The position numbers and the translations under genes were made by a program. A DNA stretch of 64,000 bases. Source: an uncultured Elusimicrobia bacterium (lineage in GTDB: Bacteria; Elusimicrobiota; Elusimicrobia; UBA1565; UBA9628). Positions 26,954 to 63,267 of this stretch are shown piece after piece. Where the stretch lies: the NCBI GenBank assembly GCA_903830945.1, contig CAIKVT010000060.1:62001-126000 (forward strand). The letters are read 5' to 3'. The notes under the pieces were generated by a model. The model ran no database searches, was not told the origin of the DNA, and worked only from the letters and a program-made list of their open reading frames with translations. The first letter of the stretch is position 1; each line of letters opens with the position of its first letter.

Positions 26954-26955
26954 TC

Positions 26956-28014: not shown

Positions 28015-28061
28015 ACGCAGCGATCCCTGCCGTCCCTGCATCGACTGGCGCCGGGCGTGGC

Positions 28062-32097: not shown

Positions 32098-32108
32098 GCG
32101 AGGTGGAC

Positions 32109-34108: not shown

Positions 34109-34120
34109 GAGCGGACTACC

Positions 34121-39414: not shown

Positions 39415-40788
39415 ATGAAGACGACAGCCAAGTCCGTCAAGGCCCCCGCAAAGCAGCCTTTCCAATATCCCCTCCAACGGCAATATGCGGAGCCGGACTG
39501 GCACCGCCTTCCCGGCTACAAGAACGTCACGCAACAGGAGTGGGAGAGCGCCCTCTGGCAGCGCCAGCATGCGGCCAAGAACCTCTCCGAACTCAAGGCC
39601 GCGCTGGGCAGCTTCCTTGACGACGCCTTGCTCGCGGACCTGGAGGCTGACCAGCGCGATTGGGCCACCATGTCCATCCTCATCCCGCCCCAGATGATAA
39701 ACTGCATGGATGAGAAGAATCTACGCGAGGACCCGGTGCGCCGCTACATGCTCCCCGCGGCCAGCGACCGGCATCCGGATTGGCCCAGCCATCCCATGGC
39801 CTCGCGCGACAGCCTCCATGAAAGCGAGATGTGGGCTGTCGAAGGATTGACCCACCGCTATCCCACCAAGGTCCTGGCCGAACTGGTGGCGACCTGCCCC
39901 CAATACTGCGGCCACTGCACGCGCATGGACTTAGTAGGCCTCTCCACACCCCAGGTCAAAAAAGGTCGGTTCCAAACCCCTCCAAAGGAACGCTTCGAGA
40001 AGATCCTCGACTACCTGCGCAAGACTCCCGCGGTGCGCGACGTGGTAGTCTCTGGCGGCGACATCGCCAACGTCCCGATCCAGCAGCTCGAGCCTTTCGT
40101 CTCAGCGCTCATGGATATCCCCAACATACGCGACATCCGCCTGGCAACCAAGGGCCTGCAGGGCCTGCCCCAGCATTTCCTGCAGGATGAGGTCCTGCGC
40201 GGACTGGAGCGCCTGGCCAAGAAGGCGCGCGAGCGCAACATCGACATCGCCATGCACACGCACATCAACTGCGCCTCCCAGGTGACGCCACTGGTGGGCA
40301 AAGCTGTGCGCAAGATCCTGGAGGTCGGATTCCGAGATGTGCGCAACCAAGGCGTGCTCCTGCGCGGGGTCAACAGCACGGCCCAGCAGATGCTGGAACT
40401 CTGTTTCATGATGGTGGACCACGCCCGCATCATGCCTTACTACTTCTACATGTGCGATATTATCCCGAACTCCGAGCACTGGCGCCTCTCCGTGGCCGAG
40501 GCCCAGGCCCTGCAGCACGATATCATGGGCTATTTGCCCGGCTTCGCCACGCCCCGGGTCTGCTGCGACGTCCCATTCGTGGGCAAGCGCTGGATTCACC
40601 AACTCGCAGACTACGACCGGATCAAGGGGATCTCCTACTGGACCAAGAACTACCGCACCTCCATCGAGCACGACGACCCCGAGGCGCTCTCGCGGCGCTA
40701 CGAGTACTACGACCCGGTCTACACTTTGCCGCCGGAAGGAATCGAGTACTGGCACAAACAAAAGATTCAGACCCCGGCGCACTCCTGA
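39415..40788 (+). CDS. KamA-family radical SAM aminomutase (lysine 2,3-aminomutase-like)
   Basis: A 457-residue radical SAM enzyme. The cluster motif is CPQYCGHC (Cys161, Cys165, Cys168), followed by VVSGGD and HTHINCASQVTP. The start WESALWQRQHAAKNLSELKA is typical of the family. It would provide beta-lysine for KamDE. However, the glycine-rich PLP loop PGGGGK of classical enzymes is replaced by VPFVGKRW, and the classical GVND reads GVNS (Ser321). It is 4 kb from the lysine operon, with its own promoter. Lysine specificity is therefore likely but not certain. Confidence 0.78.
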   Translation: MKTTAKSVKAPAKQPFQYPLQRQYAEPDWHRLPGYKNVTQQEWESALWQRQHAAKNLSELKAALGSFLDDALLADLEADQRDWATMSILIPPQMINCMDEKNLREDPVRRYMLPAASDRHPDWPSHPMASRDSLHESEMWAVEGLTHRYPTKVLAELVATCPQYCGHCTRMDLVGLSTPQVKKGRFQTPPKERFEKILDYLRKTPAVRDVVVSGGDIANVPIQQLEPFVSALMDIPNIRDIRLATKGLQGLPQHFLQDEVLRGLERLAKKARERNIDIAMHTHINCASQVTPLVGKAVRKILEVGFRDVRNQGVLLRGVNSTAQQMLELCFMMVDHARIMPYYFYMCDIIPNSEHWRLSVAEAQALQHDIMGYLPGFATPRVCCDVPFVGKRWIHQLADYDRIKGISYWTKNYRTSIEHDDPEALSRRYEYYDPVYTLPPEGIEYWHKQKIQTPAHS

Positions 40789-43892: not shown

Positions 43893-45224
43893 ATGCCTGC
43901 CAAGAGCCAGACCAAGAAGAACCTCATCATCATGGGCGCCGCAGGGCGCGACTTCCACGATTTCAACGTCTATTGGAAAAACCAATCCAACTACCGCGTC
44001 GTGGCCTTCACCGCGGCGCAGATTCCGGACATCGCCGGCCGGTCCTATCCCAAGCAGCTCGCCGGCCGCAACTACCCCAAAGGGATACCGATCAAGAACG
44101 AGTGCGAGATCACCGACCTCATCAAGAAGCACAAGGTCGACGAGGTGACGCTGGCCTACTCCGACCTCAACTACCTCGATGTCATGCACAAAGCCTCCAT
44201 CGTCAACGCCGCAGGCGCAGACTTCCGCCTCATGGGCTGGAAGCAGACCATGCTGAAGTCTAAAAAACCCGTAATCGCGATTTGCGCCGTGCGCACCGGC
44301 TGCGGCAAGAGCCAGACCACTCGCAAGGTCTGCGAGTACCTCAAGGCCATGGGCAAGAAGGTCGCGGTCATCCGCCACCCCATGCCTTATGGAGACCTGG
44401 TCAAGCAGGCCTGCCAGCGCTACGCCAAGCTTTCGGACATGGACCTGCACAAGTGCACCATCGAGGAGCGCGAGGAGTACGAGCCGCACATAGCGGCAGG
44501 CAACATTCTCTACGCGGGCGTGGACTACGGCGAGATCCTGCGCCGCGCCGAGGCCGAGGCGGACGTCATCCTCTGGGACGGCGGCAACAACGATCTGCCC
44601 TTCTATATGCCCGACCTCCATATCGTGGTCACGGACCCGCATCGGCCCGGCCACGAGCTGGCCTACTACCCCGGCGAGACCAATCTGCGCATGGCGGATG
44701 TCGTCATCATCAATAAAGTCGACACCGCCGAGGCCTCCAAGGTCGCGCTCGTTGAGAAAAACATCCGCGCCGCAAACCCCAAGGCCAAGATCATCCGCGC
44801 CGCCTCCCCGGTCACCGTGACCGATCCGAAGTCGGTCAAGGGCAAGCGCGTACTCGTCGTCGAGGACGGCCCGACGCTGACCCACGGAGAGATGCGCTAC
44901 GGCGCCGGCCATGTGGCCGCGCGAGCGGCAGGCGCCAGGAAAATCGTCGACGCCCGGCCCTACGCCGTGGGCTCAATCAAGACGACCTTCCAGAAGTACA
45001 CCCACATCACGGACATACTTCCGGCCATGGGCTACGGGGACAAGCAGATGTCGGACCTGCGCAAAACCATCGACGCCACACCCTGTGATCTGGTCATCAT
45101 CGGCACGCCCATCGACCTGACCAAGCTCCTGAAGCTCAACAAGCCATCGGTCAGGGTCACCTACGACCTCAAGGAATCCGGCACCTGCTTGCGCGACTGC
45201 ATCGCCAAGGTCATGGCCGCCTGA
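43893..45224 (+). CDS. P-loop protein, cyclic 2,3-diphosphoglycerate synthetase-like
   Basis: A 443-residue protein. Its N-terminal Rossmann-like part starts NLIIMGAAGRDFHDFNVYW; a P-loop follows in VRTGCGKSQTTRKV; later parts include ILWDGGNNDLPFY and VVIINKVDTAEASKV. This is the pattern of the cyclic 2,3-diphosphoglycerate synthetase family, which also includes GTPase-like members of unknown function in many bacteria. It heads an operon with rocD, arcC and argF (gaps of 9, 15 and 1 bases), so a role in arginine/ornithine or purine catabolism is more likely than cDPG synthesis. Confidence 0.7.
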   Translation: MPAKSQTKKNLIIMGAAGRDFHDFNVYWKNQSNYRVVAFTAAQIPDIAGRSYPKQLAGRNYPKGIPIKNECEITDLIKKHKVDEVTLAYSDLNYLDVMHKASIVNAAGADFRLMGWKQTMLKSKKPVIAICAVRTGCGKSQTTRKVCEYLKAMGKKVAVIRHPMPYGDLVKQACQRYAKLSDMDLHKCTIEEREEYEPHIAAGNILYAGVDYGEILRRAEAEADVILWDGGNNDLPFYMPDLHIVVTDPHRPGHELAYYPGETNLRMADVVIINKVDTAEASKVALVEKNIRAANPKAKIIRAASPVTVTDPKSVKGKRVLVVEDGPTLTHGEMRYGAGHVAARAAGARKIVDARPYAVGSIKTTFQKYTHITDILPAMGYGDKQMSDLRKTIDATPCDLVIIGTPIDLTKLLKLNKPSVRVTYDLKESGTCLRDCIAKVMAA

Positions 45225-45233
45225 GGAAAAGAC

Positions 45234-46463
45234 ATGATCACCACTGCCACCCCTGAAACCAAGACCCCTACCCAGGAGTTCATCGAGTATACCGAGATCT
45301 TCGGCACCCCCAACTACAAGCCCCTGCCCGTAGTCATCTCCGAGGCCAAGGGCGTCTGGGTCAAGAACCCGGAGGGCTGCAAGTACCTCGACATGCTCAG
45401 CTCTTATTCGGCCCTGAACCACGGCCACCGCCACCCGGCCATCATCAAGGCCTTGATCGACCAAGCCAAGAAAGTCACCTTGGTCTCACGCGCCTTCCAC
45501 AGCGACCAGTTGGGCCTCTTCCTCAAAGAGCTCTCGGATTTGACCGGCTTTGGCCGATCCCTGCCCATGAACTCCGGGACCGAGGCCGTAGAGACCGCCA
45601 TCAAGACCGCGCGCAAGTGGGGTTACATCAAGAAGGGCCTGCCCCAGGGCCAGGCCGAGATCATCGTGGCGGCCAACAACTTTCACGGCCGCACCGTGAC
45701 CATCGTGAGCTTCTCCACCGACGAACAGTATCGCAAAGACTTCGGGCCGTTGACCCCGGGCTTCAAAGTCGTTCCCTTCGGCGACGCCGAGGCCATAAAG
45801 TCCGCCATCACGCCCAACACCGTGGCGTTCCTGGTCGAGCCCATACAGGCCGAGGCCGGCATCCTCATGCCGCCCCCGGGCTATTTCCAGAAGGTGCGCG
45901 AGATCTGCACACGGAACAACGTCCTGTTCATGCTCGACGAGATACAAACCGGCATGGGCCGCACCGGCAAGATGTTCGCCTTCGAGCACGAAGGCGTGCG
46001 CCCCGACGTGCTCATCCTGGGCAAGGCCCTGGGCGGCGGAGCTATGCCCGTCTCCGCGGTCTGTGCTTCCTCCGAGATCCTGGGCGTGTACCAGCCCGGC
46101 GACCACGGCTCCACCTTCGGCGGCAACCCCCTAGCCTGCGCTGTGGCCCGCGCCGCCATCAGGATCCTGAAAGAAGAAAATCTAGTCGAACGCTCGGCGC
46201 AGATGGGCGAATATCTCATGAACAAGCTGCGCACACTCAAAAGCGGCTACATCAAGGAGATCCGCGGCCGAGGCCTGCTCATCGGCATCGAGCTGCACGC
46301 CGCGGCCGGCGGCGCCCGCCGCTTCTGTGAGGCCCTCATGCATCGAGGCGTGCTCTGCAAGGAGACCCACGAGCATGTCATCCGCCTAGCCCCGCCGCTA
46401 GTCATTACGGAAAAGGAGATCGACTGGGCCTTCTCGCGCCTCAAGAAGGTGCTTGGGACCTGA
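45234..46463 (+). CDS. rocD: Ornithine aminotransferase
   Basis: A 409-residue class III aminotransferase. The PLP lysine is in ILGKALGGGAMPVSAV, with DEIQTGMGRTGKM and YLDMLSSYSALNHGHRHP typical of ornithine-oxo-acid transaminases (ornithine plus 2-oxoglutarate to glutamate semialdehyde plus glutamate). Acetylornithine transaminase activity cannot be excluded. Its place beside arcC and argF supports ornithine as substrate. Confidence 0.88.
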   Translation: MITTATPETKTPTQEFIEYTEIFGTPNYKPLPVVISEAKGVWVKNPEGCKYLDMLSSYSALNHGHRHPAIIKALIDQAKKVTLVSRAFHSDQLGLFLKELSDLTGFGRSLPMNSGTEAVETAIKTARKWGYIKKGLPQGQAEIIVAANNFHGRTVTIVSFSTDEQYRKDFGPLTPGFKVVPFGDAEAIKSAITPNTVAFLVEPIQAEAGILMPPPGYFQKVREICTRNNVLFMLDEIQTGMGRTGKMFAFEHEGVRPDVLILGKALGGGAMPVSAVCASSEILGVYQPGDHGSTFGGNPLACAVARAAIRILKEENLVERSAQMGEYLMNKLRTLKSGYIKEIRGRGLLIGIELHAAAGGARRFCEALMHRGVLCKETHEHVIRLAPPLVITEKEIDWAFSRLKKVLGT

Positions 46464-50575: not shown

Positions 50576-51820
50576 TTAGCCGCCGTATCGCTTAAACAGC
50601 AAGCAGGCGTTCGTGCCGCCGAACCCGAAAGAATTCGACATCGCGCACTCAACATTGGCCTCGCGCATCTTATTGGGCACGCAATCCAAGTCACATTCCG
50701 GATCCGGGTTCTCATAGTTGACGGTCGGCGGGACTTTCCCATGAAAAATCGCCAACGCCGCAATGCCTGCCTCCACGCTGCCCGCCGCGCCCAGCATATG
50801 CCCGGTCATGGATTTGGTCGAGCTGACCATCAGACCCTTCTTGGCGCAATCACCGAAGACCTTCTTGATAGCCATAGTCTCAAGCTTGTCGTTGAACGGG
50901 GTAGAGGTACCGTGTGCATTGATGTAACCCACCTGCTCCGGCTTAATGCCCGCGTCGTTGAGCGCGTTCTGCATGACACGGCAGGCACCGTCACCGTCTT
51001 CGGAAGGCGTGGTGATGTGAAAGGCGTCGCCGGACATACCGTAGCCAACCAGCTCGACGATGATCTTAGCGCCACGCGCCTGAGCATGTTCGAGCGCCTC
51101 CAGCATAAGTATGCCGGAGCCCTCACCCATAACAAAGCCGTCGCGCTCCTTGTCGAACGGCCGGCTGGCACGCTGGGGCTCCTCATTTCGCCTGGAAAGG
51201 GCGCGCATGTTGCCGAACCCACCCACGGCCAACGGCGTGATAGCCGCCTCGGCCGCGCCGCAAATCATGACGTCCGCATCGCCACGCTGAATAACGCGGA
51301 ATGAGTCTCCAATAGCGTGCGCGCCCGAGGAGCAGGCCGTGCAGGTCGCAGTGTTGGGGCCCTTGGCGCCATGGCGGATGGAGACCTGCCCGGCCGCCAG
51401 GTTGATGATGCTGCCGGGGATGAAGAACGGTGAGATCCGGCGCGGTCCGCCCTTCATGAGCTCGGTGTGCTCATTTTCGATAGTGGAGAAGCCGCCAATG
51501 CCGGAACCGATGTTGACCCCTACGCGAGGGCCGTTCTCACCGTTGATGACCAGGCCCGACGACTTGACGGCGAAGTCGGCGGCGGCGATGGCGTACTGGA
51601 TGAAGGGGTCCATCTTCTTGACCTCCTTCTTCTCGACCCAGAGCAACGGGTCGAAGCCTTTGAGCTCGGCCGCGATCTTCGTGGAGAACTGGGTGGTGTC
51701 GAATTTAGTGATGAGGCCCACGCCGCTCTTGCCCTGCATGAGCGAGCTCCAGGTCAGCTCCGTCCCGATGCCGACCGGAGTCACCAGGCCGATTCCGGTC
51801 ACGACCACTTTGCGTTTCAC
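50576..51820 (-). CDS. fabF: 3-oxoacyl-ACP synthase II
   Basis: From the GTG at 51820 (AGGAGG 7 bases upstream) the protein has 414 residues. The thiolase-fold enzyme elongates fatty acids. The Cys-His-His triad is in [22 protein letters not shown] and [10 protein letters not shown]. Start [17 protein letters not shown] is typical. It is divergent from the Pls-like gene, with a 170-base intergenic region holding a TATCAT box (51861-51866, minus strand). Confidence 0.93.
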
Positions 51821-51927
51821 GATGACGCCTCCTGAAAATTCCAGATTACAGCGAAGCCTAATGATACCAAAATGCCCCACCCTTGTCCTCCCTTTAGGAA
51901 ACTAAGACGAGGAAGACCGATTTTTGA

Positions 51928-51992: not shown

Positions 51993-54900
51993 ATGTCAGC
52001 GCTGGATCACCTCTCGTTTCTAGCCAATCCCGATCCCACTCTGGCCGCCGATGGCCTGCTCCATGCGCTCTTCACGGACAGCGCGCGGCGCCATGGCCCG
52101 CTGCCGGCCCTGGAATGCGAGGGTCGTCGGCTCTCCTACGAAGATCTCGACGCCGCCTCCAATCAATTCGCGCATCAGCTGCGCGCCCAAGGAGTCATTG
52201 CCGGAGACAGGGTCTGCATCCTGCTCAACAAGTCTCCCGAGATCTACATATCCTTGCTCGGCGTCCTCAAAGCCGGCGCGGCTTATGTCCCGCTCGATCC
52301 CTCCTATCCGCCGGAGCGCGTGCGCTTCATCACCGAAGACTGCGGCGCCGCCCTATTGGTCACAAGCCTGGAGTTTCTGCCCGTCGCAGGAAAAGTCGCG
52401 AGGCAGAAGTTGTATTGGAACGAAGCGCGCCACGAGATCGCCCGGCAAAGCACAGTGCCTACGCACTGCGATCGCATGCCGGAGGACGAGGCCTACGTCA
52501 TCTACACCTCCGGCACCACGGGAAACCCAAAGGGCGTGGCCGTGACCCACGGCAGCGTTTTCCATCTAGTGCGGGCCGAAGCCAAAATCTATCAGGTCCG
52601 AGGCGATGACCGGGTGCTGCAAGGCTTCTCCGTGGCTTTCGACGCCTCCGTGGAGGAGATGTGGGCCGCTTGGAACGTGGGTGCGACCTTGGTGGCAGGC
52701 ACCGCGGCCATCATGCACTCGGGACCGGATCTGGGCCGACTCTTGTCCGAGCTGAAGATCACGATATTCTCGACCGTGCCCACGCTGTTGACCATGCTCA
52801 CGGAGCCGGCGGCCTGCGTGCGCCTGCTCATCCTCGGAGGCGAAGCCCTGCCCGCGGAACTCATCCGGCCGTGGCTTTCTCCCGAAAGGCGCATCTACAA
52901 CACCTATGGTCCGACCGAGACCACGGTCATCGCGACGCTCTGCCTGTGTCGGCCGGAAGCTCGCGTCACCATCGGCCGGCCATTGGCCAACTACACAGCC
53001 ACCATCTGCGACGAACGCGGCGCCATCATTGAGAGAGGGCAGGAGGGCGAACTCCTCATCGGAGGTCCGGGCGTCGCCAAGGGCTACCTCAACTGCGATG
53101 GACTCACCCGCGCGAAATTCGTGCGCAATACCCACGCCGAACTGACCGGCGATCAGAGCCCCATTCTATATCGCACCGGGGACCTGACTCGTATCGACGG
53201 CGACGGGGACATCGAGTTCCTCGGGCGCATCGATACCCAGGTCAAGATTCGCGGCTACCGCGTGGAGCTCGCGGAGATCGAATCCTTGCTGCGCGAGCTT
53301 TCCGGAGTCCGCAACGCGGTCGCGCTGGTCCAGGAAAGCCCGGGCGGCAGCGTGTTGGGCGCCTACGTGGAGCTCGCGGCCGGGACGGCCTTCGACGAGG
53401 CCGATGCGCTCGCGGGGCTCAAACGGCGCCTACCGCCCTACATGGTCCCCCTTTTCATCGAAACCCTCTCCAAATTCCCCACGCTGGCCAGTGGAAAAGT
53501 CGACCGGAAATCCTTCCCGCCGCCCAAAAGGAAAGTCGTCGCAGGCAGACGGCCCGATTTCGGATCTCCGCTCAAAAATGCCGTTTACGAAGCCTGGGCG
53601 CGGCTCTTCGAGAACGAGCAGATCTCCGAGACCGACAATTTTTTCATGGACCTCGGGGGCCATTCCCTACTGGCCGCGCAATTCATATCGGAGATGCGCC
53701 GGGAGGAACGCTTTGCGGAACTCGCCATCAGCGACCTCTACGCTCATCCCTCTATCTGCGAGCTGGCCATTTGTCTGGAACACAAGCTCGCGACACGGCC
53801 TGCAGCCGGCTCACAGGGCCAGTCAGCCGCCGATTTCCATAGCGTGCCGCAGTGGCAGTACCGTCTGAGCGTTGTGGCCCAGGTCGTCATACTCTATTTC
53901 ATCAACGGCTTCTTCGCCCTGCAATGGATCACGCCCTTCATGGCTTACAGCTTCATGAGGGCCTATGAACGGCCTTACTTGGAATCCCTGCTCATCGCCT
54001 TCCTGAGCCTATGCTGCATCTACCCCCTTATGCTGCTGCTGGGTATCGGGGCCAAATGGCTCATCCTGGGCCGCCTGCGGGAAGGCGACTATCCCATCTG
54101 GGGGACCTACTATCTGAGATGGCTCATGACCCAGCGTCTGCTGGCCGCGGTACCCCTGCATTTTTTAGCCGGCACGCCGCTGATGGCGCACTACCTCAGG
54201 CTGCTGGGATCAAAGGTCGGGCGGGACGCTTACATCGATTCTTATCTCATTTCAGGGCTCGATCTTCTGGACATCGGGGACCATGCCAGCATCAACGCGG
54301 AAGCCAACATCTCGACCTATAGCCTGGAAGACGGGTTCCTCAAGCTGCGCCGCGTCGAGATCGGCGAGGGCGTCTCGGTGGGCGCCCGCTCCGTTGTAGG
54401 CCCGGGCGTAGTGATCGGCGCCGGCACGGTGATAGGCGACCTCAGCTGCATCCGCAGCGGCCAGCGGGTCGGCCCCGCGCAGTATTGGTCGGGTTCGCCG
54501 GCGTGCCAGAGCACGCCGACGTTTCTGGGCAGCCCTTCTCCTCTCCCGAAAACGGCCGCCACTCATATCCCCGACTGGCTGTCCACGGTCTTCTACACCG
54601 CCTGCTTCTTCACCCTTCCGGCCCTGGGGCTGCTGCCCATCTTCCCGGGCATCATGCTGATGTACCACATGGACCTCAGGACCGAGCACTATGCTTACCT
54701 CCTGCTGGCACCACTGGTCGCGATCGTCTTCGTCGTGCTCTCAGCCCTCCAGGTCCTGGCCTTGAAGTGGCTCCTTCTGGGACGGCTCAAAGAAGGCGTC
54801 TACCGTATCAAGAGCTGCTTCTATATGCGCAAATGGGTCTTAGACAAACTCATGGAAAACAGCCGAGAGCTCCTGCAGACGCTCTATGCCACTCTCTACC

Positions 54901-55961
54901 TCAATCCCTGGTACCGCGCCCTGGGCGCAAAAATCGGAGAGAACGCCGAAATATCCACTGCCTCCTTCATCCTGCCCGACCTCCTGCATGTCGGAGCGGG
55001 GAGCTTCATCGCCGACGGGGCTGGGCTGGGCCCAGCCAAGGTCGTGGGCGGGGAAATCATCCTAAGGAAAACCGAGCTAGGGACGCGGACCTTCATCGGC
55101 AACAGCGCCTTCGTGCCGGTGGGCTCGCGGCTGGGCGACAACTGCCTACTGGGCTGCCTCTCCATCCCGCCCGGCGAGTCCACCCCGGACGGCACCTCCT
55201 GGCTGGGATCTCCGGCCGTGAACCTCCCCCAGCGCCAGAAGCCCGCCAATCAGTTCGCCGAGGAGAGGACTTATCATCCCACCCGAAGCCTCTATGGCCA
55301 GCGTCTATTCATCGAATTCTTCCGAGTCATCCTGCCCTCCACGGCTTTCGTAGTCTTCACGACACTGATGCTCTCCTTCGCCGTCCAGATGGAGGACCTG
55401 CATGGGCCTCTGCTGACCGTCCTGATGTTTCCTGCCGTCTATATCGTCTTCGGAGTCGTCGCGATGCTGCTCACCGCGGCCATGAAGTACGCGATCGTGG
55501 GACGCTACCGTCCGGACGAGCAGCCGCTCTGGAGCACCTTTGTCTGGCGCACGGAGCTCATGACCGGTTTCTGCGAGAACTTCGCCAACGAGTTCTTCGT
55601 CCGCCAGCTCGAGGGCACGGTGTTCTTGCCCTTCTATTACCGGCTCCTGGGCATGAAGGTGGGCCGGCGCGCCTGCCTGCTGACCACGGATTTCACGGAA
55701 TTCGACCTCGTCGCGCTGGGCGATGACGTGGCGCTCAACGAGGACTGCACCATCCAGACCCATCTCTTCGAAGACCGTGTCATGAAGATAGGCCCGGTCA
55801 AGATCGGCTCGCGCGTTTCCATCGGCAGCAATACGGTGATCCTCTATGGCAGCGTTATCGAGGACGACGTCAAGGTGGGAGATCTTTCACTGCTGATGAA
55901 AGGCGAGCGCCTGCGCGCCGGCTCGCAATGGGCCGGCTCCCCCCTCAAGAGCTGCCGGTAG
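51993..55961 (+). CDS. Pls/PosA-like membrane non-ribosomal peptide synthetase
   Basis: A single 1322-residue protein with the architecture of epsilon-poly-L-lysine synthetase (Pls) and polyornithine synthetase PosA. Order: adenylation domain (residues about 20-510; YTSGTTGNPKG at 171, FDASVEEMW with Asp217, YGPTETTV, KIRGYRVELAEIE), carrier domain (LGGHSLL with Ser558), then three hexapeptide-rich C domains separated by three pairs of membrane helices (about 627-680, 862-925, 1109-1165). Pls activates one amino acid and polymerises it on the membrane without a normal condensation domain. My manual pocket reading is D-A-E-S-L-L-T-V-I-K, whose start matches lysine codes. A homopolymer of lysine or a similar basic amino acid is inferred. 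Confidence 0.85.
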   Translation: MSALDHLSFLANPDPTLAADGLLHALFTDSARRHGPLPALECEGRRLSYEDLDAASNQFAHQLRAQGVIAGDRVCILLNKSPEIYISLLGVLKAGAAYVPLDPSYPPERVRFITEDCGAALLVTSLEFLPVAGKVARQKLYWNEARHEIARQSTVPTHCDRMPEDEAYVIYTSGTTGNPKGVAVTHGSVFHLVRAEAKIYQVRGDDRVLQGFSVAFDASVEEMWAAWNVGATLVAGTAAIMHSGPDLGRLLSELKITIFSTVPTLLTMLTEPAACVRLLILGGEALPAELIRPWLSPERRIYNTYGPTETTVIATLCLCRPEARVTIGRPLANYTATICDERGAIIERGQEGELLIGGPGVAKGYLNCDGLTRAKFVRNTHAELTGDQSPILYRTGDLTRIDGDGDIEFLGRIDTQVKIRGYRVELAEIESLLRELSGVRNAVALVQESPGGSVLGAYVELAAGTAFDEADALAGLKRRLPPYMVPLFIETLSKFPTLASGKVDRKSFPPPKRKVVAGRRPDFGSPLKNAVYEAWARLFENEQISETDNFFMDLGGHSLLAAQFISEMRREERFAELAISDLYAHPSICELAICLEHKLATRPAAGSQGQSAADFHSVPQWQYRLSVVAQVVILYFINGFFALQWITPFMAYSFMRAYERPYLESLLIAFLSLCCIYPLMLLLGIGAKWLILGRLREGDYPIWGTYYLRWLMTQRLLAAVPLHFLAGTPLMAHYLRLLGSKVGRDAYIDSYLISGLDLLDIGDHASINAEANISTYSLEDGFLKLRRVEIGEGVSVGARSVVGPGVVIGAGTVIGDLSCIRSGQRVGPAQYWSGSPACQSTPTFLGSPSPLPKTAATHIPDWLSTVFYTACFFTLPALGLLPIFPGIMLMYHMDLRTEHYAYLLLAPLVAIVFVVLSALQVLALKWLLLGRLKEGVYRIKSCFYMRKWVLDKLMENSRELLQTLYATLYLNPWYRALGAKIGENAEISTASFILPDLLHVGAGSFIADGAGLGPAKVVGGEIILRKTELGTRTFIGNSAFVPVGSRLGDNCLLGCLSIPPGESTPDGTSWLGSPAVNLPQRQKPANQFAEERTYHPTRSLYGQRLFIEFFRVILPSTAFVVFTTLMLSFAVQMEDLHGPLLTVLMFPAVYIVFGVVAMLLTAAMKYAIVGRYRPDEQPLWSTFVWRTELMTGFCENFANEFFVRQLEGTVFLPFYYRLLGMKVGRRACLLTTDFTEFDLVALGDDVALNEDCTIQTHLFEDRVMKIGPVKIGSRVSIGSNTVILYGSVIEDDVKVGDLSLLMKGERLRAGSQWAGSPLKSCR

Positions 55962-56252: not shown

Positions 56253-56258
56253 TATGAT
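56253..56258 (+). promoter_or_regulatory. Putative -10 box of the MoeB-like gene, leaderless start
   Basis: TATGAT, 10 bases before the ATG at 56269; no ribosome binding site in between. Confidence 0.4.
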
Positions 56259-56268
56259 ATCTTCAGTC

Positions 56269-57399
56269 ATGCCTACCCCAGATTTAAGTCCTGAAGACCT
56301 TTGCCGCTATAGTCGACAGATCGTTCTGCCCGAGCTCGGTTTCGAAGGGCAGAAAAAGCTCAAGGCCGCACGAGTGTTGGTGGTGGGCATGGGCGGTCTG
56401 GGCGCGCCGCTAAGCCTTTACCTGACCGCAGCCGGGATCGGGACCTTGGGATTGGTCGACCATGACGCAGTCGAGCTGGCCAACCTGCACCGCCAGATCC
56501 TCTACGCGAACGAGTCCGTGGGCCGATCCAAGCTGACCGAGGCCGAGACGCGGCTCAAGGCCCTCAACCCCGGGGTGAAGATCATCCGCCACGAAGAGCG
56601 CTTGACCTCGCGCAACGCCCTGAACATCATCAATGGCTACGACGTGGTAGCCGACGGAACGGATAATTTTCCGACCCGCTATCTGATCAACGACGCCTGC
56701 GTCCTGGCCGGCAAACCCAACGTGCACGCAGCCGTGTTCCGCTTCGAGGGACGACTCTCCGTGTTCGATGGCCGCAAAGGCCCCTGCTACCGCTGCCTCT
56801 TTCCGCAGCCGCCCGTGCCCGGCACGGTTCCGGACTGCGCCGCCGGCGGGGTGCTGGGCGCTCTGCCCGGCGTGATGGGTTCGCTGCAGGCCGTAGAGGT
56901 CGTCAAGCTCATCCTGGGCGCTGGAGTGCCGGCCATAGGCAAGCTCGTGGTATTCGACGCGCTCTCCATGGAGTGGCAGACTATATCCATCCGCAAAGAC
57001 CCGCGCTGCCCGCTCTGCGGGGCCAAGCCCACGATCCGGGAATTGGCGGACTATGAAGCCTTCTGTGGCGACGTCATGCCAGAGGCGTCGGTAGAGGAAC
57101 TCAAGGCCAAGCTGAACCGCAAGGACGACTTCCTGCTGCTAGACGTGCGGGAACCGGCGGAGCACGCTCTAGCCAACATACCAGGCGCCATGCTCATCCC
57201 TCTTGGTGAACTCCCAAAGCGCCTGCAGGAGCTGGAGCCGTATCGGAGTCAACCCATTCTAGTGCACTGCCGCACGGGAAATCGTTCGGCTACCGCGGTC
57301 AGACTATTGCGCGAACAAGGTTTCCCTGGCGCGGTCAACGTGGCGGGCGGCATCGCGGCCTGGTCCGAGCGCGTCGACCCGTCGGTTCAGAAATACTAA
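56269..57399 (+). CDS. MoeB/ThiF-type adenylyltransferase with rhodanese domain (MoeZ-like)
   Basis: A 376-residue E1-like protein from the ATG at 56269 (an ATG at 56254 is also in frame). The ATP site is VVGMGGLGAPLSLYL; DNFPTRYLINDAC follows; the zinc site is formed by CYRC and CPLC; VPDCAAGGVLGALPGV is the E1 segment. The C-terminal rhodanese domain has HCRTGNRS with the persulfide Cys. Such fusions adenylate and thiolate small sulfur carriers (MoaD, ThiS, CysO) for molybdopterin, thiamine or cysteine synthesis. No carrier gene is adjacent. Confidence 0.9.
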   Translation: MPTPDLSPEDLCRYSRQIVLPELGFEGQKKLKAARVLVVGMGGLGAPLSLYLTAAGIGTLGLVDHDAVELANLHRQILYANESVGRSKLTEAETRLKALNPGVKIIRHEERLTSRNALNIINGYDVVADGTDNFPTRYLINDACVLAGKPNVHAAVFRFEGRLSVFDGRKGPCYRCLFPQPPVPGTVPDCAAGGVLGALPGVMGSLQAVEVVKLILGAGVPAIGKLVVFDALSMEWQTISIRKDPRCPLCGAKPTIRELADYEAFCGDVMPEASVEELKAKLNRKDDFLLLDVREPAEHALANIPGAMLIPLGELPKRLQELEPYRSQPILVHCRTGNRSATAVRLLREQGFPGAVNVAGGIAAWSERVDPSVQKY

Positions 57400-57543: not shown

Positions 57544-57789
57544 TTATCCGTTCCATTTTCTATTGTTGAGAAGCCGTTCTGCTTCGAACGTTTTAAAAGG
57601 TCGGTCACGTGCTGCCTGCATCAGAACGGCGGCTTCATGGTCCGTCTGCTTGGCCGCGATCACATCCAAGGCCTGGAGGTTGACGCCCTCACGTAGATAC
57701 TTCTCGACGTTTTTGATTGATCTGAGGCGTTCGTAGGGCGTCTGGTAGGTCTTGTATTTCTTGCGTCTCCTGCCCTTCTCATCGACCAT
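57544..57789 (-). pseudogene. C-terminal transposase/integrase remnant
   Basis: About 80 codons from MVDEKGRRRKKYKTYQTPYE to the stop. KTYQTPYERLRSI, YLREGVNLQALDVIA and a final ARDRPFKTFEAER resemble the C-terminal tail of DDE integrase-type transposases. The catalytic part is absent. It abuts the truncated gene at 57804, whose reading frame runs into it. Confidence 0.45.
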
Positions 57790-57803
57790 CACCGTCGCAC
57801 AGC

Positions 57804-58169
57804 CTAGTCTTGGTCTGTCGGCCAATGTTTGCAGAAATCCTCTAGGAATTCGTCCCAAGACCGGAGGCCGTACCTTTGAAAATAGGTGTCCGGAAAAGAG
57901 AAGCCGTGGTCGATGCCGACTATTGCGGGTTCAGGATCCTTCAACTGATAAAGTAACCAATGGGCTAGTTCCTTTCGTGTCCAGTTCCAACGCATGTGCT
58001 TGGAAGTGGTTCCATCACCGGTCGTTGTATTTTGCTCCGTGGGTTGCCCGCCCGAGACAGCCATGAAGACTCTCAAGCCTGACAGCCGGCTCGTCGGGGT
58101 CTCGGCGCCGGAGTAGTCAATTCCGATGTAACGTCCGAACCGCGTCTGGCTCACCTGTCGCTCATCCAA
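57804..58169 (-). pseudogene. Truncated IGIDYSGAETP-type protein
   Basis: 121 codons remain: GRYIGIDYSGAETPTSRLSG, then HWLLYQLKDPEPAIVGIDHG and FSFPDTYFQRYGL up to HWPTDQD. This is the start of a longer family that I recall as about 250-300 residues, with a DUF429/RNase H-like look (acidic residues in GIDYSG and GIDHG). The frame stops where the transposase remnant begins. Its ATG overlaps the upstream nucleotidyltransferase gene by 19 bases, so it was the third gene of that operon. Confidence 0.6.
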
Positions 58170-58750
58170 TCCGGCAGGTCAATCTCCGTCTCCTGGACCT
58201 GGTAGTAATCGCGCTCCACGACATGGAGATTGGTGATGAACTTCGGCAACTCCTCCGCCCGGGCATCAAGCTCGTAGCCGTCCACGGCGGAGCGGAAGCG
58301 CTCAATGAGCCGGTCGTGCTCAACCACACCCGTACTTACCATGGCCTCAACGTCGTCAGCATCATTGGCGTTGAAGCGCTTAAGTTTGCTGACTACAACA
58401 TCCACCGTGTCCAGTGCATCCACCACAAAGTTCTTGAGTCCCTTAAGGCTCTCTACCGGCCTATAGTCCGGCGGATGCGGCAGGAAGGGCGTAGCGCGGG
58501 CGACGATATCCAGATACATGCCGTAGCGTGTGTGAAATTCGGTTTTCTGCCCGGCGATTTCCAGCAAAGCCTTCCTGACCGGCTCCGTGATGAAATCCGT
58601 CTCTATCACGTCGCTGTCCTTGGTCCGGCGTTCATACTCGGTGAGAAGCATGAGCGCCGCAGAGCCGATGACCCGCAACGGAATGCGCGCCGCCTGGGGC
58701 TGCTTCCAATGCCGATCCAGGTCGATAAAGAAATCTCTAATCAGCGCCAT
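58151..58750 (-). CDS. Nucleotidyltransferase-like protein (DUF6036 type)
   Basis: A 199-residue protein with the minimal nucleotidyltransferase motif: RVIGSAALMLL followed by RRTKDSDVIETD, then VSKLKRFNANDADDVEAM. The usual DxD reads DSD. Similar proteins occur beside HTH regulators in toxin-antitoxin-like pairs. It overlaps the XRE gene by 14 bases and the truncated downstream gene by 19, indicating tight co-translation. A toxin role is inferred. Confidence 0.65.
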   Translation of the reverse strand: MALIRDFFIDLDRHWKQPQAARIPLRVIGSAALMLLTEYERRTKDSDVIETDFITEPVRKALLEIAGQKTEFHTRYGMYLDIVARATPFLPHPPDYRPVESLKGLKNFVVDALDTVDVVVSKLKRFNANDADDVEAMVSTGVVEHDRLIERFRSAVDGYELDARAEELPKFITNLHVVERDYYQVQETEIDLPDWMSDR

Positions 58751-59522
58751 GGGCTTGCCTCAGTGCGTGGACGAAATCTTCCGTCTGAAATCGGGTCACG
58801 ATGCGCCAAGCCTTGGAGATCCTGGAGGATGATGCGCGAACCTGCTCCACGGTTTCCTGACTGGCAATCCCCTTGTCGAGGATATCCTCAGCAGGTGTGC
58901 TGGCAGAATTGTCTCTCTCATTCAGCCAGGGAGCAAGGAAATTCTCAAGGACAGTCTCGGCCCTTTTGTATCGGACCCGCCACTCGCGACTGCGGGTCGG
59001 GTCCTTCTCCTGCCGCAGTGCCTCAAGGGTGTTCTCAAGGACCCAGCCCAGGTGTCGTTCGAAGCCGGCTTGCCGCAGGTCCTCTCTCAGCTTGGAGAGA
59101 TTGATCCTGTTGATGTTCGCGACGATGACAGGCGCCAGGGCCGAAGTCTGTCTTGGCGACTCCCCGCTGACCAAGGTCTGCAGTATTACCTCGTTGACCT
59201 CCTTCAGCGCTTCGGTGGGCAAGACTTCCGAACTTTCGAAGAGGTGGCTGCCGCCAAGACGGGCCAGGGCGTTCTGGAGTTGAGATTCGGCCGAGGCCTT
59301 GGAAGAAGCAAAGTAGTCCACCGGGACATTGAAGGTCTTGAGGACAACAAGCAACTGCTCGGCCGTGAAAGAGCCCTGGCCAAGCTCTATCTCTGATAGG
59401 CGGTTCTGTGAGAGACCTAGAAGCTTGGCCAATTGTGCCTGCGTCCACCGGCGCTCGGTGCGCAGCTGGCGCACCTTGCCGGCGATGGATGTCCGCAGCT
59501 TCTCTGGGGCGTCTTGTTTCAT
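58737..59522 (-). CDS. XRE-family HTH regulator with C-terminal domain
   Basis: From the ATG at 59522 the protein has 261 residues. The helix-turn-helix is at residues about 16-70 (RQLRTERRWTQAQLAKLLGL, SQNRLSEIELGQGSFT). The long C-terminal region of helices has no recognisable motif. An inverted repeat lies just upstream, typical for autoregulation. It probably acts as antitoxin and repressor for the nucleotidyltransferase operon. Confidence 0.75.
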   Translation of the reverse strand: MKQDAPEKLRTSIAGKVRQLRTERRWTQAQLAKLLGLSQNRLSEIELGQGSFTAEQLLVVLKTFNVPVDYFASSKASAESQLQNALARLGGSHLFESSEVLPTEALKEVNEVILQTLVSGESPRQTSALAPVIVANINRINLSKLREDLRQAGFERHLGWVLENTLEALRQEKDPTRSREWRVRYKRAETVLENFLAPWLNERDNSASTPAEDILDKGIASQETVEQVRASSSRISKAWRIVTRFQTEDFVHALRQAHGAD

Positions 59523-59530
59523 ATCGGATA

Positions 59531-59556
59531 ATCGATATTTATATCGATATATCGAT
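59531..59556. promoter_or_regulatory. Operator candidate of the XRE operon
   Basis: ATCGATAT and ATATCGAT form a perfect 8-base inverted repeat around TT (59531-59548); a further ATATCGAT follows at 59549-59556. It lies 8 bases upstream of the XRE start. Confidence 0.65.
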
Positions 59557-59646
59557 AGTATATGATGAAATACGTTATTTGTCAATGCTTTAATTGTTCG
59601 ACACAAAAATACAGACTAAGTGCAAAATTCCCCATCTGATGGAATT

Positions 59647-59822
59647 TCAGGCGCTCACACTGTTACTGAGTAAGCGGTCCATGGGCGAGAACTTACGGTG
59701 CTGTTCGTACACGTCCCGGCTGGCCAGGTTAACGTAGTTGCGCACCATCTCCAAGGTCAAGTGGCCCAGGATCTCCTGCAGGCTGAAAGGGTCCCCCCCA
59801 TTGCGGATATATATGAAGAGCA
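59647..59822 (-). pseudogene. Tyrosine recombinase C-terminal remnant
   Basis: About 55 codons: IRNGGDPFSLQEILGHLTLE and MVRNYVNLASRDVYEQH match the catalytic tail (GH and final Tyr) of tyrosine recombinases. It is similar to, but diverged from, the recombinase at 60433-61396. Upstream it is interrupted by the helicase fragment. Confidence 0.7.
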
Positions 59823-59826
59823 GCCG

Positions 59827-60207
59827 GCAAAACGCCGCCACTTCGCATGGAAGAAATCGCTTCCCAATGCCAACGACCCACCGAAACCAAGTTCTGTGTC
59901 CGAACCTAAAATATCCACAAATGAGCATGAATCGTCGCTTGAGGCCGAGGGCGACGACGACTCCGGCCGACAAATTGACGATATCCCCCGAGAGGACATC
60001 CGCGAAGCGCTCCGACATCTGGTTCCGAAGGGGTTGAGAATAGAGCGAGAAGACCTCCTAAAGAAACTGGCGACAGCCCTTGGCCAACAGCGGCTAGGGC
60101 GCAAAATCCGTAGTCGGCTCAATCGAGCAATCGGAGGTGAGGCTCGTGCCGGGAACCTCGAGACCGACTGGGATTTCGTCTGGAGGACGCCTGATACAGG
60201 ACCTTAA
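59827..60207 (+). pseudogene. C-terminal fragment of a DUF3320-type helicase
   Basis: In the plus strand, DDIPREDIREALRHLV, GLRIEREDLLKKLATALG and QRLGRKIRSRLNRAI followed by a stop after about 50 more bases resemble DUF3320, the end of large DUF4011-type helicases. No helicase motor motifs remain. It sits between two recombinase pieces, so it looks like debris of an earlier element. Confidence 0.5.
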
Positions 60208-60432
60208 GACGCGAATCAAGGGACTACAGGCCTTCGGAGATAAGCTCACAAAAAAGGCTCGAGTCGATTCCCGGTTCGCCGCCGCTTGGATTCGTCGCCA
60301 GAAACAGAACATTCAAGAAAGGTCGAACTGGATATTGCGGGGCGGATTCCTGATTACCCACTTCGGTATCATCGACCGCATCAAATTGTCATGAGCCCTC
60401 GCGAATTCGAACTGGACCATATCGAACGGCCA
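60208..60432. other. Short intergenic stretch in the accessory zone
   Basis: No gene, repeat or promoter that I can support. Confidence 0.4.
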
Positions 60433-61396
60433 TCAATGCATGACGATCTTCCTGGAAGCCCCCGGCATCGGTCCCATCAAGTCGATCGGCGAATACTTCT
60501 TGTGCTGCAGCGCCACGTCGCGGTTGGCCAGCCGCACATAGATCTTCACCATCTCCAACGTCGAGTGCCCTAGTATCTGCTGCAGGCTGAACGCATCACC
60601 GCCGTTGAGGATATACTGCGTCGCGAACGTATGCCTCAGCGTATGCGGCGACACCCGCACCCCCTGGATGCCGGCAGCGGCGCCGTAACGCTTGAGCGTG
60701 ATCTGGAAGTGCCGCTGGCAAATCTGCCCACCGAACTGGTCAAGGAAGAAGATATCCTGTCCCGGCACATCCCCCCTTCGCAGGGAATAGTCCCATAGCG
60801 CCTTCTTAACCCCGGTCCCGAACGGCACGGCGCGTTCCTTGTCCCCCTTACCCTGCACAAAGACTCGGTTGCCCGGCCAGTCGATACGGTCTCGCCGCAG
60901 GCCCAGGACCTCCCAACCGCAGCCCCGTGTCCACCAACGTCAACATCATCACCCAGTTCCGAAAGCCCACGAACGTCTTAACCTTCGGCTGGGCCAAGAG
61001 CAGCCGGACCTGGTCCATGGACAATGGATGGATCAGCACCTGGCTCTTGCGCGGCTTCTCGACCAAGGTCACCGGGTTCTGCGGGATGAGCCGCTCCTGG
61101 GTCAGGTAGCGGAAGAAGCAGCGCAGGCCGCCGTAAGTCCGGTCGACCGTGATGGACGATATCCCACGCTCGCGCAGGTGGTCCAGGTAGGCCCTAAAGT
61201 GGTTCGGGGTAGTCTCGCGAGGGGACGGGGCCCCATTGGCCTCCAGGAAGCGCGTAAAGCCCCCTAGGACGAACTTGTACCAGTCCAGGCTATGGTGAGA
61301 CAGGTTGCGCGACCGGCAGCGCAAGGAGAAGAGCTCCAGCGCCTGCCCATAAGTGACGGCTTGCGAGCCCACCAAGGTCGGCCACAATCTGCGCAT
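60433..61396 (-). pseudogene. Tyrosine recombinase, frameshifted
   Basis: The N-terminal part (from about 61396, MRRLWPTLVGSQAVTYGQAL, SAM-like core-binding domain, then LVDTGLRL with the first catalytic Arg) and the C-terminal part (GKGDKERAVPFG, HTLRHTFATQ, LGHSTLEMVKIY) lie in different frames. Both join perfectly if one G is removed from a GGG run (CCC at 60912-60914 on the plus strand), giving LRLEVLGLRRDRID. Either a real inactivating insertion or a sequencing error. All catalytic residues except for the shift are present. Confidence 0.8.
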
Positions 61397-61515
61397 GTTC
61401 GCCTCCCGAATTTCGGCTAACCTTGCGAACTCGCAGACACCCTGGAAAATCGGCTTTCTCGTCGGGAGACGCCGATTTAGCTTGACACCACCACCTCCCA
61501 ATGCTATGCTTATCC

Positions 61516-61592
61516 TGCGGGGTAGAGCAGCCCGGTAGCTCGCAAGGCTCATAACCTTGAGGTCGCTGGTTCAAATCCAGCCCCCGCAACCA
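61516..61592 (+). tRNA. tRNA-Met (CAT), initiator-like
   Basis: A 77-base cloverleaf with CCA encoded (61590-61592). Acceptor arms TGCGGGG and CCCCGCA; D-stem GAGC/GCTC with A11:U24, an initiator mark; anticodon CAT in CTCATAA; T-loop GTTCAAATC. The body matches bacterial initiator tRNA. Two points differ: the first pair is U1-A72 (weak, not the usual C-A mismatch), and one of the three G-C pairs of the anticodon stem is A-U. Confidence 0.88.
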
Positions 61593-63267
61593 GCTTAGTA
61601 AGATAAGCGTTACCGAAGGCTGAGGCAAGAGTCGGATGCCTCCCTTCGGTAACTTCTTTTTGGGGCCTCGGGACCTTGTAAAAGTAGTGCGTGGCCTGGG
61701 GCCGGCCGGAAGCGTGGGCGATGCGCGTCTCGTAAAGGAACGCTCTCAAGAAGGCCTTCCTCTCGCTGTTGTTGCCGTTCTGGATGACGCCCTCGAACTC
61801 ACCCAACAACTCCTTCATCTCGCGCACCACTTCGTCGACCGCGATGTGCGCGCATCGGCGCTTGAGGATGTTGTCTTTCTCTTCCATCAGCTGCCGCCGC
61901 GCGGCCTCCAAACGGCCCAGCTCCTCGCGCACAAACGGTGAAAGCAGCCCGTTCTTGATGGCGTCCAACAGATTGTCGATCTGCTTCTGGTTGCGGGCCA
62001 GGGAATCCTGTATATCCTCTGCCGTCAACCCAGGTTTCTCGCGCAACTCCGTCTCCACGACCTGATCGATCCGCTCCCGCAAACCGTCCATCCACTCCTT
62101 ATCGCTTATCCGGCGGCGGATAGTCTCAATAACGAAAAGCTCCAGGGCCTCCCTCGGCACATGAATGCTCCTGCAAACCTGCGTGCCCTTCATGACATAC
62201 CCGCCGCAAGTATAGTATTCGGCGGTCCGGCCGTTGCCCTTCTTGGTCAGCCCCTGGAATCGATGACCGCACTCCTGGCAGACTATGAGCCCGCTGAGCA
62301 GCCAATTCTTCCTCCGGTTGGCGGCGCCATGGCCGAACGGCCTGGACTTAAGCTTCGCGTGAACGCTTAAAAACAGTTCCTTGGACACGATCGCCTCGTG
62401 CGCATCCTCGCAAACGATCCACTGCTCCTCGGGCTTGATGGATCCCCGCTTGGTCACACCAGTACGGTCATGGAAGCTGTGCTTATTGTAAACGCGCGTC
62501 CCGATGTAGGCGACGTTGCGCAAGAGGTAGTGGACCTGGTTCTTGCTCCACGCCCCGCCTGCGGGTCCGGCAATCCCTTGCTTGTTCAACTCATCGACAA
62601 TCATGAAGAGGCCTTTGCCGCGGTTCGACATCTCGAAAATGGAAAGGACGACCTTGACCTTCTGCGGGTCGCCGGGCACCCACACGATTCTCTGGAGCTT
62701 GTCCGCCTTGTGCTGGCCGGGCCCGAGCCGCTTAACCTCCGCGCCGGAAGCATCCATGATCATGCGGTCATAGCCGTAAGGCGCCCGCCCGCCGCAGCTG
62801 GTCCCCCGCGCCGCGTGGGTCTTGCAGCCGCGCAGCGTGTCCTCGGAAAGCTTGATGCTGTACTGGTGGGCCTCGCTGTGCTTGACGGCCCGCATGATCA
62901 CGTCGCCGATGGAGCCGTCGTTCTTGAAGTCGTCCTTGACGTAGATGATCTGGAGGCCGCCCTGTTTCTTAAAGCGCTGCTCCCAATAGATCTTCGCCTC
63001 CGGGTCGAGGCGGCCGAAACGGCTCACGCTGTAGATTATGAGGCAGGAAGCGCCGTGGCCGCCCGCCTCCGCCAGCCGGAGCATCTCGCGGAAGCCGGGG
63101 TCTTTGTCGATGGTCAGGCCCGAGGCGTAGCCCTTGGGTGGGACGAACTCCCTGGAGATAACGCACCCCATCTCCGCGGCCTTGGCGCGGCAGGCAGCGC
63201 GCTGGTCGTCGATAGAGACCTCCTGCATGTTCGTGGAACGCCTGTAAAAAGCCCATGCATTCTTCAT
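61549..63267 (-). CDS. Large serine recombinase
   Basis: A 572-residue recombinase. The resolvase domain starts AFYRRSTNMQEVSIDDQ with the catalytic Ser11, then YSVSRFGRLDPEA. A recombinase domain (GGRAPYGYDRM, WSKNQVHYLLRNVAYIGTRV), a zinc ribbon (CQECGHRF, CGGYVMKGTQVC) and a coiled coil (residues about 425-480) follow. It integrates DNA at att sites. Its 3' end, ending GAGFEPATSRL, lies over the 3' half of the tRNA-Met gene in antisense. The start overlaps vapC by 4 bases. Confidence 0.9.
   Translation of the reverse strand: MKNAWAFYRRSTNMQEVSIDDQRAACRAKAAEMGCVISREFVPPKGYASGLTIDKDPGFREMLRLAEAGGHGASCLIIYSVSRFGRLDPEAKIYWEQRFKKQGGLQIIYVKDDFKNDGSIGDVIMRAVKHSEAHQYSIKLSEDTLRGCKTHAARGTSCGGRAPYGYDRMIMDASGAEVKRLGPGQHKADKLQRIVWVPGDPQKVKVVLSIFEMSNRGKGLFMIVDELNKQGIAGPAGGAWSKNQVHYLLRNVAYIGTRVYNKHSFHDRTGVTKRGSIKPEEQWIVCEDAHEAIVSKELFLSVHAKLKSRPFGHGAANRRKNWLLSGLIVCQECGHRFQGLTKKGNGRTAEYYTCGGYVMKGTQVCRSIHVPREALELFVIETIRRRISDKEWMDGLRERIDQVVETELREKPGLTAEDIQDSLARNQKQIDNLLDAIKNGLLSPFVREELGRLEAARRQLMEEKDNILKRRCAHIAVDEVVREMKELLGEFEGVIQNGNNSERKAFLRAFLYETRIAHASGRPQATHYFYKVPRPQKEVTEGRHPTLASAFGNAYLTKLVAGAGFEPATSRL
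61609..61661 (+). terminator. Terminator of the tRNA gene
   Basis: GTTACCGAAGG (61609-61619) pairs with CCTTCGGTAAC (61643-61653), with a second inner pair GAGGCA/TGCCTC and a following TTCTTTTT. It lies antisense inside the recombinase coding region. Confidence 0.8.

What the first reader, a model, noticed from the sequence alone, without database searches (positions are those of the whole stretch)
51993..55961. Pls/PosA-like synthetase: possible poly-lysine (or similar) polymer maker
The 1322-residue protein has the full layout of epsilon-poly-lysine synthetase: A domain, carrier domain, six membrane helices, three C-terminal hexapeptide-rich domains, at nearly the same length as the Streptomyces enzyme. 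Manual alignment to the GrsA pocket gives D-A-E-S-L-L-T-V-I-K; DAES is the start of lysine codes. Known producers are Actinobacteria and a few Proteobacteria, so this lineage would be new, and the host also ferments lysine.
Basis: partly seen in the sequence, partly recalled or inferred. Interest (0 to 1): 0.85.

Follow-up and report, generated by a model that had tools for sequence, protein, structure and literature searches.

The report
Probable polylysine-making enzyme in Elusimicrobiota
An uncultured Elusimicrobiota bacterium carries a complete gene for a membrane enzyme that very probably links lysine molecules into a short antimicrobial polymer; the enzyme family is already known from many phyla, so this is a new host rather than a new kind of system.

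Summary
ORF 51993-55961 (1322 aa) is a full-length Pls/PosA-family NRPS-like homopolymer synthetase: NCBIfam TIGR02353, 628 bits against a cut-off of 423; adenylation domain; carrier domain with GGHSL; six membrane helices; three left-handed beta-helix repeats (AlphaFold2 pLDDT 90, pTM 0.90). The aligned code is DAESIGTVIK, 9/10 identical to epsilon-poly-lysine synthetase (DAESIGTVVK). It is clearly unlike PosA/ornithine (DMEHNGTVSK), poly-beta-lysine (DGESISVVNK) and a probable diaminobutyrate enzyme (DFECLSAVTK). L-lysine is the best call and epsilon-poly-L-lysine the likely product; neither is assayed.

The host is an Elusimicrobiota of GTDB order UBA1565. The gene is rare there (4 of 56 genomes) and syntenic in one sister species, so it is not contamination. 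The polymerase half belongs to a PosA/Holophagaceae/Planctomycetes clade, not to actinobacterial Pls. The family was already published in many phyla, so the new-lineage point is modest.

By-product: the only invariant histidine in the polymerase half (H1257, 41/41 sequences) aligns with catalytic His115 of galactoside acetyltransferase. This suggests a fused acyltransferase trimer with one surviving active site. The lysine-fermentation genes nearby are unrelated to this gene.

The parts
51993..55961 (+). Pls/PosA-family homopolymer synthetase gene, 1322 aa, apparently a single-gene unit
   Evidence: TIGR02353 628 bits
52056..53513 (+). Adenylation domain (residues 22-507)
   Evidence: TIGR01733 417 bits; PF00501/PF13193; phmmer to 7wew (Pls A domain) E 7e-87 and 8g95 (PosA A domain) E 9e-73
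52641..52655 (+). Pocket residues D217, A218, E221 (alpha-amine anchor, chain-length position, side-chain amine anchor)
   Evidence: alignment with Pls and PosA; roles from PMC10522769
52770..52931 (+). Pocket residues S260, I280, G282, T304, V312, I313
53496..53498 (+). Pocket lysine K502
53580..53771 (+). Peptidyl carrier (thiolation) domain, residues 530-593
   Evidence: PF00550 E 4.5e-8
53664..53666 (+). Carrier serine S558 in LGGHSLL, expected phosphopantetheine site
   Evidence: PPTase genes in the genome
53874..55943 (+). Membrane polymerase domain (residues 628-1317): six helices plus three left-handed beta-helix repeats
   Evidence: AlphaFold2 model; hydropathy
54060..54512 (+). C1 repeat (left-handed beta-helix)
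54765..55232 (+). C2 repeat (left-handed beta-helix); holds invariant D1008 (55014-55016)
55479..55958 (+). C3 repeat (left-handed beta-helix) with the family-invariant QTHLFEDR loop
55761..55763 (+). H1257, only invariant histidine of the polymerase half; aligns with catalytic His115 of E. coli LacA
50576..51880 (-). Divergent neighbour: beta-ketoacyl-ACP synthase (FabF-like); flanking gene, not part of the system
   Evidence: conserved in G002 and G006
56254..57399 (+). Downstream neighbour: MoeB/ThiF-rhodanese; flanking gene, not part of the system

Best explanation
The gene encodes a membrane-bound NRPS-like cationic homopolymer synthetase that most likely makes epsilon-poly-L-lysine. Proposed cycle: (1) a PPTase primes S558; (2) the A domain binds L-lysine, D217 holding the alpha-amine and E221 the epsilon-amine, and adenylates it; (3) lysyl-AMP is passed to the carrier as a thioester; (4) at the membrane, the C1-C3 domain transfers the carrier-bound lysyl carbonyl to the epsilon-amine of a free lysine or growing chain, forming isopeptide bonds iteratively without template, condensation domain or thioesterase; (5) the cationic chain leaves the cell. 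The A-domain call, carrier motif and polymerase fold are shown by sequence or model. Lysine activation is inferred from the pocket. Polymerisation is inferred from characterised homologues. Use of C3 H1257 as general base, in a fused pseudo-trimer of left-handed beta-helix acyltransferase type, is my own inference. Export and antimicrobial role are assumed by analogy.
For: Family model over cut-off. Pocket 9/10 to Pls, with only the ninth position differing (I for V); 7WEW, the solved epsilon-poly-L-lysine synthase A domain, shares the Pls pocket segments. The pocket signal does not follow overall relatedness: the probable diaminobutyrate enzyme L123 is closer over the A domain (47.3% against 42.5% for Pls) but matches only 4/10 code positions. 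Holophagaceae, planctomycete, verrucomicrobial, Hymenobacter and other Elusimicrobiota relatives carry the same DAESIGTV[IV]K. C-terminal model pLDDT 90, pTM 0.90, with six long helices and three beta-helices, as described for PosA. The genome has AcpS plus two further PPTase-family loci and LysA. The same layout in Corynebacterium variabile gave 26-35-residue epsilon-PL on heterologous expression (PMC8117764). Syntenic copy in G002.
Against: No biochemistry. In PosA the M218A change, which puts Ala at this position, still left kcat/KM about 17 times higher for ornithine than for lysine, so Ala218 alone does not prove lysine. The polymerase half groups with PosA-type enzymes rather than actinobacterial Pls (97/98; 31% identity to Pls). 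Ornithine-metabolism genes (aminotransferase 45234-46463, carbamate kinase, OTC) lie 3.6-6.8 kb upstream. No clear ribosome-binding site precedes the ATG.
Confidence: 0.8

Rival explanations
1. [quoted passage not shown]
For: The C-terminal half is in one clade with PosA (97/98); ornithine genes lie upstream; PosA M218A still prefers ornithine.
Against: The pocket matches PosA at 6/10 against 9/10 for Pls. It lacks H260, N280 and S313; losing the S313 hydroxyl cost PosA 183-fold. True PosA-like pockets (DMEHNG[TS]V[ST]K) recur in Sphingomonas and Bacteroidota and are distinct.
Confidence: 0.09
2. It is an epsilon-poly-beta-lysine synthetase, fed by a lysine 2,3-aminomutase.
For: A KamA-like gene lies at 39415-40788 in the same window and is 58% identical to the KamA directly upstream of a DGESVSVVNK synthetase in Actinoplanes. 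beta-Lysine would be an intermediate of lysine fermentation in this host.
Against: The characterised poly-beta-lysine code is DGESISVVNK (PMC10522769); this pocket differs at 4-5 of 10 positions. KamA is not adjacent (11 kb away) and is a core gene of the order, in 37 of 57 searched relatives, most without the synthetase.
Confidence: 0.04
3. It makes another cationic monomer's polymer (arginine-like, a longer diamine, or a mixed polymer).
For: The family holds uncharacterised pockets, and a Bdellovibrionales member activates arginine.
Against: This pocket is not one of the unknown types; it is the Pls type.
Confidence: 0.05
4. The gene is inactive, silent or an assembly contaminant.
For: No Shine-Dalgarno seen; present in only 4 of 56 genomes of the order.
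Against: Reading frame and invariant residues are intact; the G002 copy is 84% identical with the same flanking genes; flanking genes on the same contig have G002 orthologues of about 72-93% identity; GC is level with the surroundings.
Confidence: 0.02

Closest known systems
epsilon-Poly-L-lysine synthetase Pls (Streptomyces; A domain PDB 7WEW)
   Same: A-T-TM/C1-C3 layout, length (1322 aa; 1320 aa for the Streptomyces homologue L125), pocket 9/10
   Different: 42.5% A-domain and 31% polymerase identity to L125, a homologue whose A domain matches 7WEW at 873 bits; placed outside the actinobacterial Pls clade in both trees; none of the M1 metallopeptidase neighbours seen in L125 and L130
PosA, delta-poly-L-ornithine synthetase (Acinetobacter baumannii; PDB 8G95-8G98)
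   Same: Layout, single-gene setting, polymerase clade, pocket anchors Asp217/Glu221/Thr304 at the same residue numbers
   Different: Pocket DAESIGTVIK against DMEHNGTVSK
epsilon-Poly-beta-lysine synthetase (Streptoalloteichus; probable homologues L089, L036)
   Same: Layout; beta-lysine could be made in this host
   Different: Code DGES[IV]SVVNK; KamA gene adjacent there, not here
Left-handed beta-helix acyltransferases (LacA/GAT, maltose O-acetyltransferase)
   Same: Fold of C1 and C3 (Z 8.0, rmsd 2.8-3.7 A); catalytic-His loop of C3
   Different: Fused pseudo-trimer on a membrane bundle, no CoA-dependent activity expected, one histidine instead of three

Membership tests
Pls/PosA (CHPA) synthetase family | TIGR02353 C-terminal domain over curated cut-off | tested here: met
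   627.8 against 423.1 bits, profile 1-694/695
Pls/PosA (CHPA) synthetase family | One A domain and one carrier domain with active-site Ser; no condensation or thioesterase domain | tested here: met
Pls/PosA (CHPA) synthetase family | Six TM helices in three pairs separating C1-C3 | tested here: met
   hydropathy; model
Pls/PosA (CHPA) synthetase family | Asp and Glu at code positions 1 and 3 | tested here: met
   D217, E221
Pls/PosA (CHPA) synthetase family | Makes an isopeptide-linked homopolymer | not testable with these tools
   needs enzyme assay and mass spectrometry
epsilon-Poly-L-lysine synthetase (Pls) | Lysine pocket DAESIGTVVK | tested here: met
   DAESIGTVIK, 9/10; the sister species G002 has 10/10
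epsilon-Poly-L-lysine synthetase (Pls) | Falls in the actinobacterial Pls clade (orthology) | tested here: not met
   outside the Pls clade in both trees; works like Pls by pocket, not an orthologue of it
epsilon-Poly-L-lysine synthetase (Pls) | Activates L-lysine and polymerises it | not testable with these tools
   needs adenylation assay and product analysis
PosA (delta-poly-L-ornithine synthetase) | Pocket DMEHNGTVSK | tested here: not met
   6/10
PosA (delta-poly-L-ornithine synthetase) | Polymerase domain clade shared with PosA | tested here: met
   97/98 support
epsilon-Poly-beta-lysine synthetase | Pocket DGESISVVNK with an adjacent lysine 2,3-aminomutase gene | tested here: not met
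   5/10 to the Actinoplanes form; KamA 11 kb away and a core gene of the order

The most novel reading that the evidence does not exclude
The isopeptide-forming site of the whole Pls/PosA family, unassigned in the literature I could read, is a single left-handed-beta-helix acyltransferase site. C1-C3 would be a fused trimer in which only C3 keeps the catalytic histidine loop (QTHLFEDR, H1257 here), working against neighbouring-repeat residues such as invariant D1008 of C2.
Probability: 0.5. Interest if true: 0.6.

Novelty: new member of a known kind. Interest (0 to 1): 0.38.

Why it matters
It places a probable polylysine synthetase in Elusimicrobiota, a nearly uncultured phylum, and shows that lysine pockets occur on PosA-type polymerase domains in several phyla. 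Comparing it with PosA would separate pocket effects from polymerase effects on monomer choice and chain length. The conserved-histidine analysis gives one residue to mutate in order to locate the unknown bond-forming site of a family that includes the source of an approved food preservative.

Tried and rejected
Link to lysine fermentation: rejected; lysine 5,6-aminomutase is in this genome only (1 of 57) and absent from the sister species that has the synthetase. Link to KamA/beta-lysine: rejected on pocket and on core distribution. Link to upstream ornithine genes: considered; conserved in G002 as chromosomal synteny, but the pocket disagrees. My provisional label of the Mycobacterium avium plasmid homologue L128 as a diaminopropionate enzyme (from a cysteine-synthase neighbour) was wrong by its pocket, DAESIGTVVK; it is Pls-type. 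A 16S gene was not found in G000, so host placement rests on contig lengths of related genomes. No solved structure of the whole polymerase half appeared among Foldseek's matches; this is not proof that none exists. PDB matches cover single beta-helix repeats at Z about 8, which alone could be a common arrangement, so the His claim rests on the profile alignment and invariance. The A-domain tree does not resolve the query's nearest relatives (weak forks).

Full report
WHAT IS THERE. The + strand ORF 51993-55961 encodes 1322 residues; the open frame from stop to stop allows at most 20 more, and no usable start precedes the ATG. NCBIfam names the C-terminal half directly: TIGR02353, Pls/PosA family non-ribosomal peptide synthetase, 627.8 bits against a cut-off of 423.1 over profile positions 1-694 of 695. 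Upstream lie an adenylation domain (TIGR01733, PF00501, PF13193) and a carrier domain (PF00550) with LGGHSLL; no condensation or thioesterase domain was found. Hydropathy gives six segments in three pairs.

POCKET. I aligned 44 sequences, including A. baumannii PosA (L120, whose A domain matches 8G95 with no visible differences over 412 residues) and a Streptomyces enzyme (L125) whose A domain matches 7WEW, the solved epsilon-poly-L-lysine synthase, at 873 bits. The alignment reproduces the published PosA code DMEHNGTVSK. The query reads DAESIGTVIK. Pls reads DAESIGTVVK. Over the 34-residue pocket signature the query matches L125 at 25, PosA at 23, the Actinoplanes beta-lysine-type enzyme L089 at 22 and the probable diaminobutyrate enzyme L123 at 18. 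L123, next to a diaminobutyrate aminotransferase and aspartate kinase, is nevertheless the nearer over the whole A domain (47.3% against 42.5%), so the pocket agreement with Pls is not simply shared ancestry.

BETA-LYSINE AND ORNITHINE CONTROLS. The window holds a KamA-like gene, and the homologous KamA lies directly upstream of the synthetase in Actinoplanes (L089; a partial KamA match also lies downstream in Pilimelia L036), whose code DGESVSVVNK matches, bar one V/I change, the characterised epsilon-poly-beta-lysine synthetase DGESISVVNK. This made beta-lysine a serious rival. It is weakened because the pocket differs at four to five positions and because KamA is a core gene of the order, present in 37 of 57 searched relatives, most of them without the synthetase. 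Ornithine remains the better rival: the polymerase half is in the PosA clade, and PosA M218A still prefers ornithine.

POLYMERASE HALF. AlphaFold2 on 23 aligned sequences gave pLDDT 90 and pTM 0.90, with six long helices and three left-handed beta-helices, matching the published description of the PosA model. Single repeats match maltose and galactoside O-acetyltransferases (Z 8.0; 142-147 residues, rmsd 2.8-3.7 A); middling by the tool's own calibration. H1257 is the only invariant histidine in the polymerase half (41 of 41). A C3 profile aligns with E. coli LacA (hhalign probability 97.2, E 4.4e-11) so that H1257 falls on LacA His115, which from my own knowledge is the catalytic histidine; LbH acyltransferases share such a histidine on a protruding loop (PMC3046976). 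The matching positions in C1 and C2 are not histidine. A single active site supplied by C3 is therefore a testable inference. PMC10522769 notes the acyltransferase resemblance but, in the text I read, assigns no catalytic residue; PMC8117764 also calls C1-C3 acetyltransferase-related.

HOST AND DISTRIBUTION. A same-class genome has a single 1,643,562-base contig, the length I recall for Elusimicrobium minutum. A same-family genome has a 3,802,950-base contig, exactly the published length of JAD_PAG50586_1, Elusimicrobiota order UBA1565 (PMC9476967). The synthetase occurs in 4 of 56 genomes of the order: this one, one sister species (84% identity, same FabF and MoeB-rhodanese neighbours), a relative with two copies at 44-45%, and a fragmented copy in another family. 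In a third congener (G006) SOD-FabF and MoeB-rhodanese are 5.7 kb apart with no synthetase between them, so the site is variable. The C-terminal tree puts the query in a clade with Holophagaceae, a planctomycete, Bacteroidota, Alphaproteobacteria and PosA (97/98), and apart from the G017/G084 enzymes within that clade, which suggests more than one acquisition in Elusimicrobiota. Full-length homologues in many phyla agree with PMC10522769.

VERDICT. Confirmed observation with a corrected pocket; strong case for a lysine homopolymer synthetase; a new host lineage for a known, widespread family. Synthesis of the polymer is not shown.

Noticed in passing
window 26132-35302: Lysine-fermentation genes (3-keto-5-aminohexanoate cleavage enzyme, KamC-like ATPase, lysine 5,6-aminomutase alpha at 800 bits and beta, acetyl-CoA acetyltransferase). 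Lysine 5,6-aminomutase was found in this genome only, of 57 relatives, so probably acquired horizontally.
   Followed up: partly
window 39415-40788: Divergent KamA-family radical SAM protein (457 aa, 174 bits to AblA, below cut-off 525), conserved across the order at 70-91% and 58% identical to the KamA next to a probable poly-beta-lysine synthetase in Actinoplanes. Its role in genomes without lysine fermentation is open.
   Followed up: partly
L089 6523-11885; L036 8001-12495: Actinoplanes and Pilimelia synthetases with code DGESVSVVNK and a neighbouring KamA match: probable epsilon-poly-beta-lysine loci.
   Followed up: partly
window 57544-63267: Stretch of lower GC just downstream with a large serine recombinase, an integrase N-terminal part and further integrase-like fragments, and an HTH regulator: a probable integrated element near the synthetase.
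   Followed up: no
L151 3120-8840 (G006): In a congener the FabF to MoeB interval lacks the synthetase and holds 5.7 kb whose four ORFs scanned have no Pfam match.
   Followed up: partly
L128: Mycobacterium avium plasmid (also in M. intracellulare by search hit) carries a synthetase with the Pls lysine pocket DAESIGTVVK beside a cysteine-synthase-family gene.
   Followed up: no
window 43893-45224: 443-aa GTP-binding protein (resembles cyclic 2,3-diphosphoglycerate synthetase from memory; only a weak CobW hit) heading an ornithine aminotransferase, carbamate kinase and ornithine carbamoyltransferase group, mostly conserved in G002.
   Followed up: no
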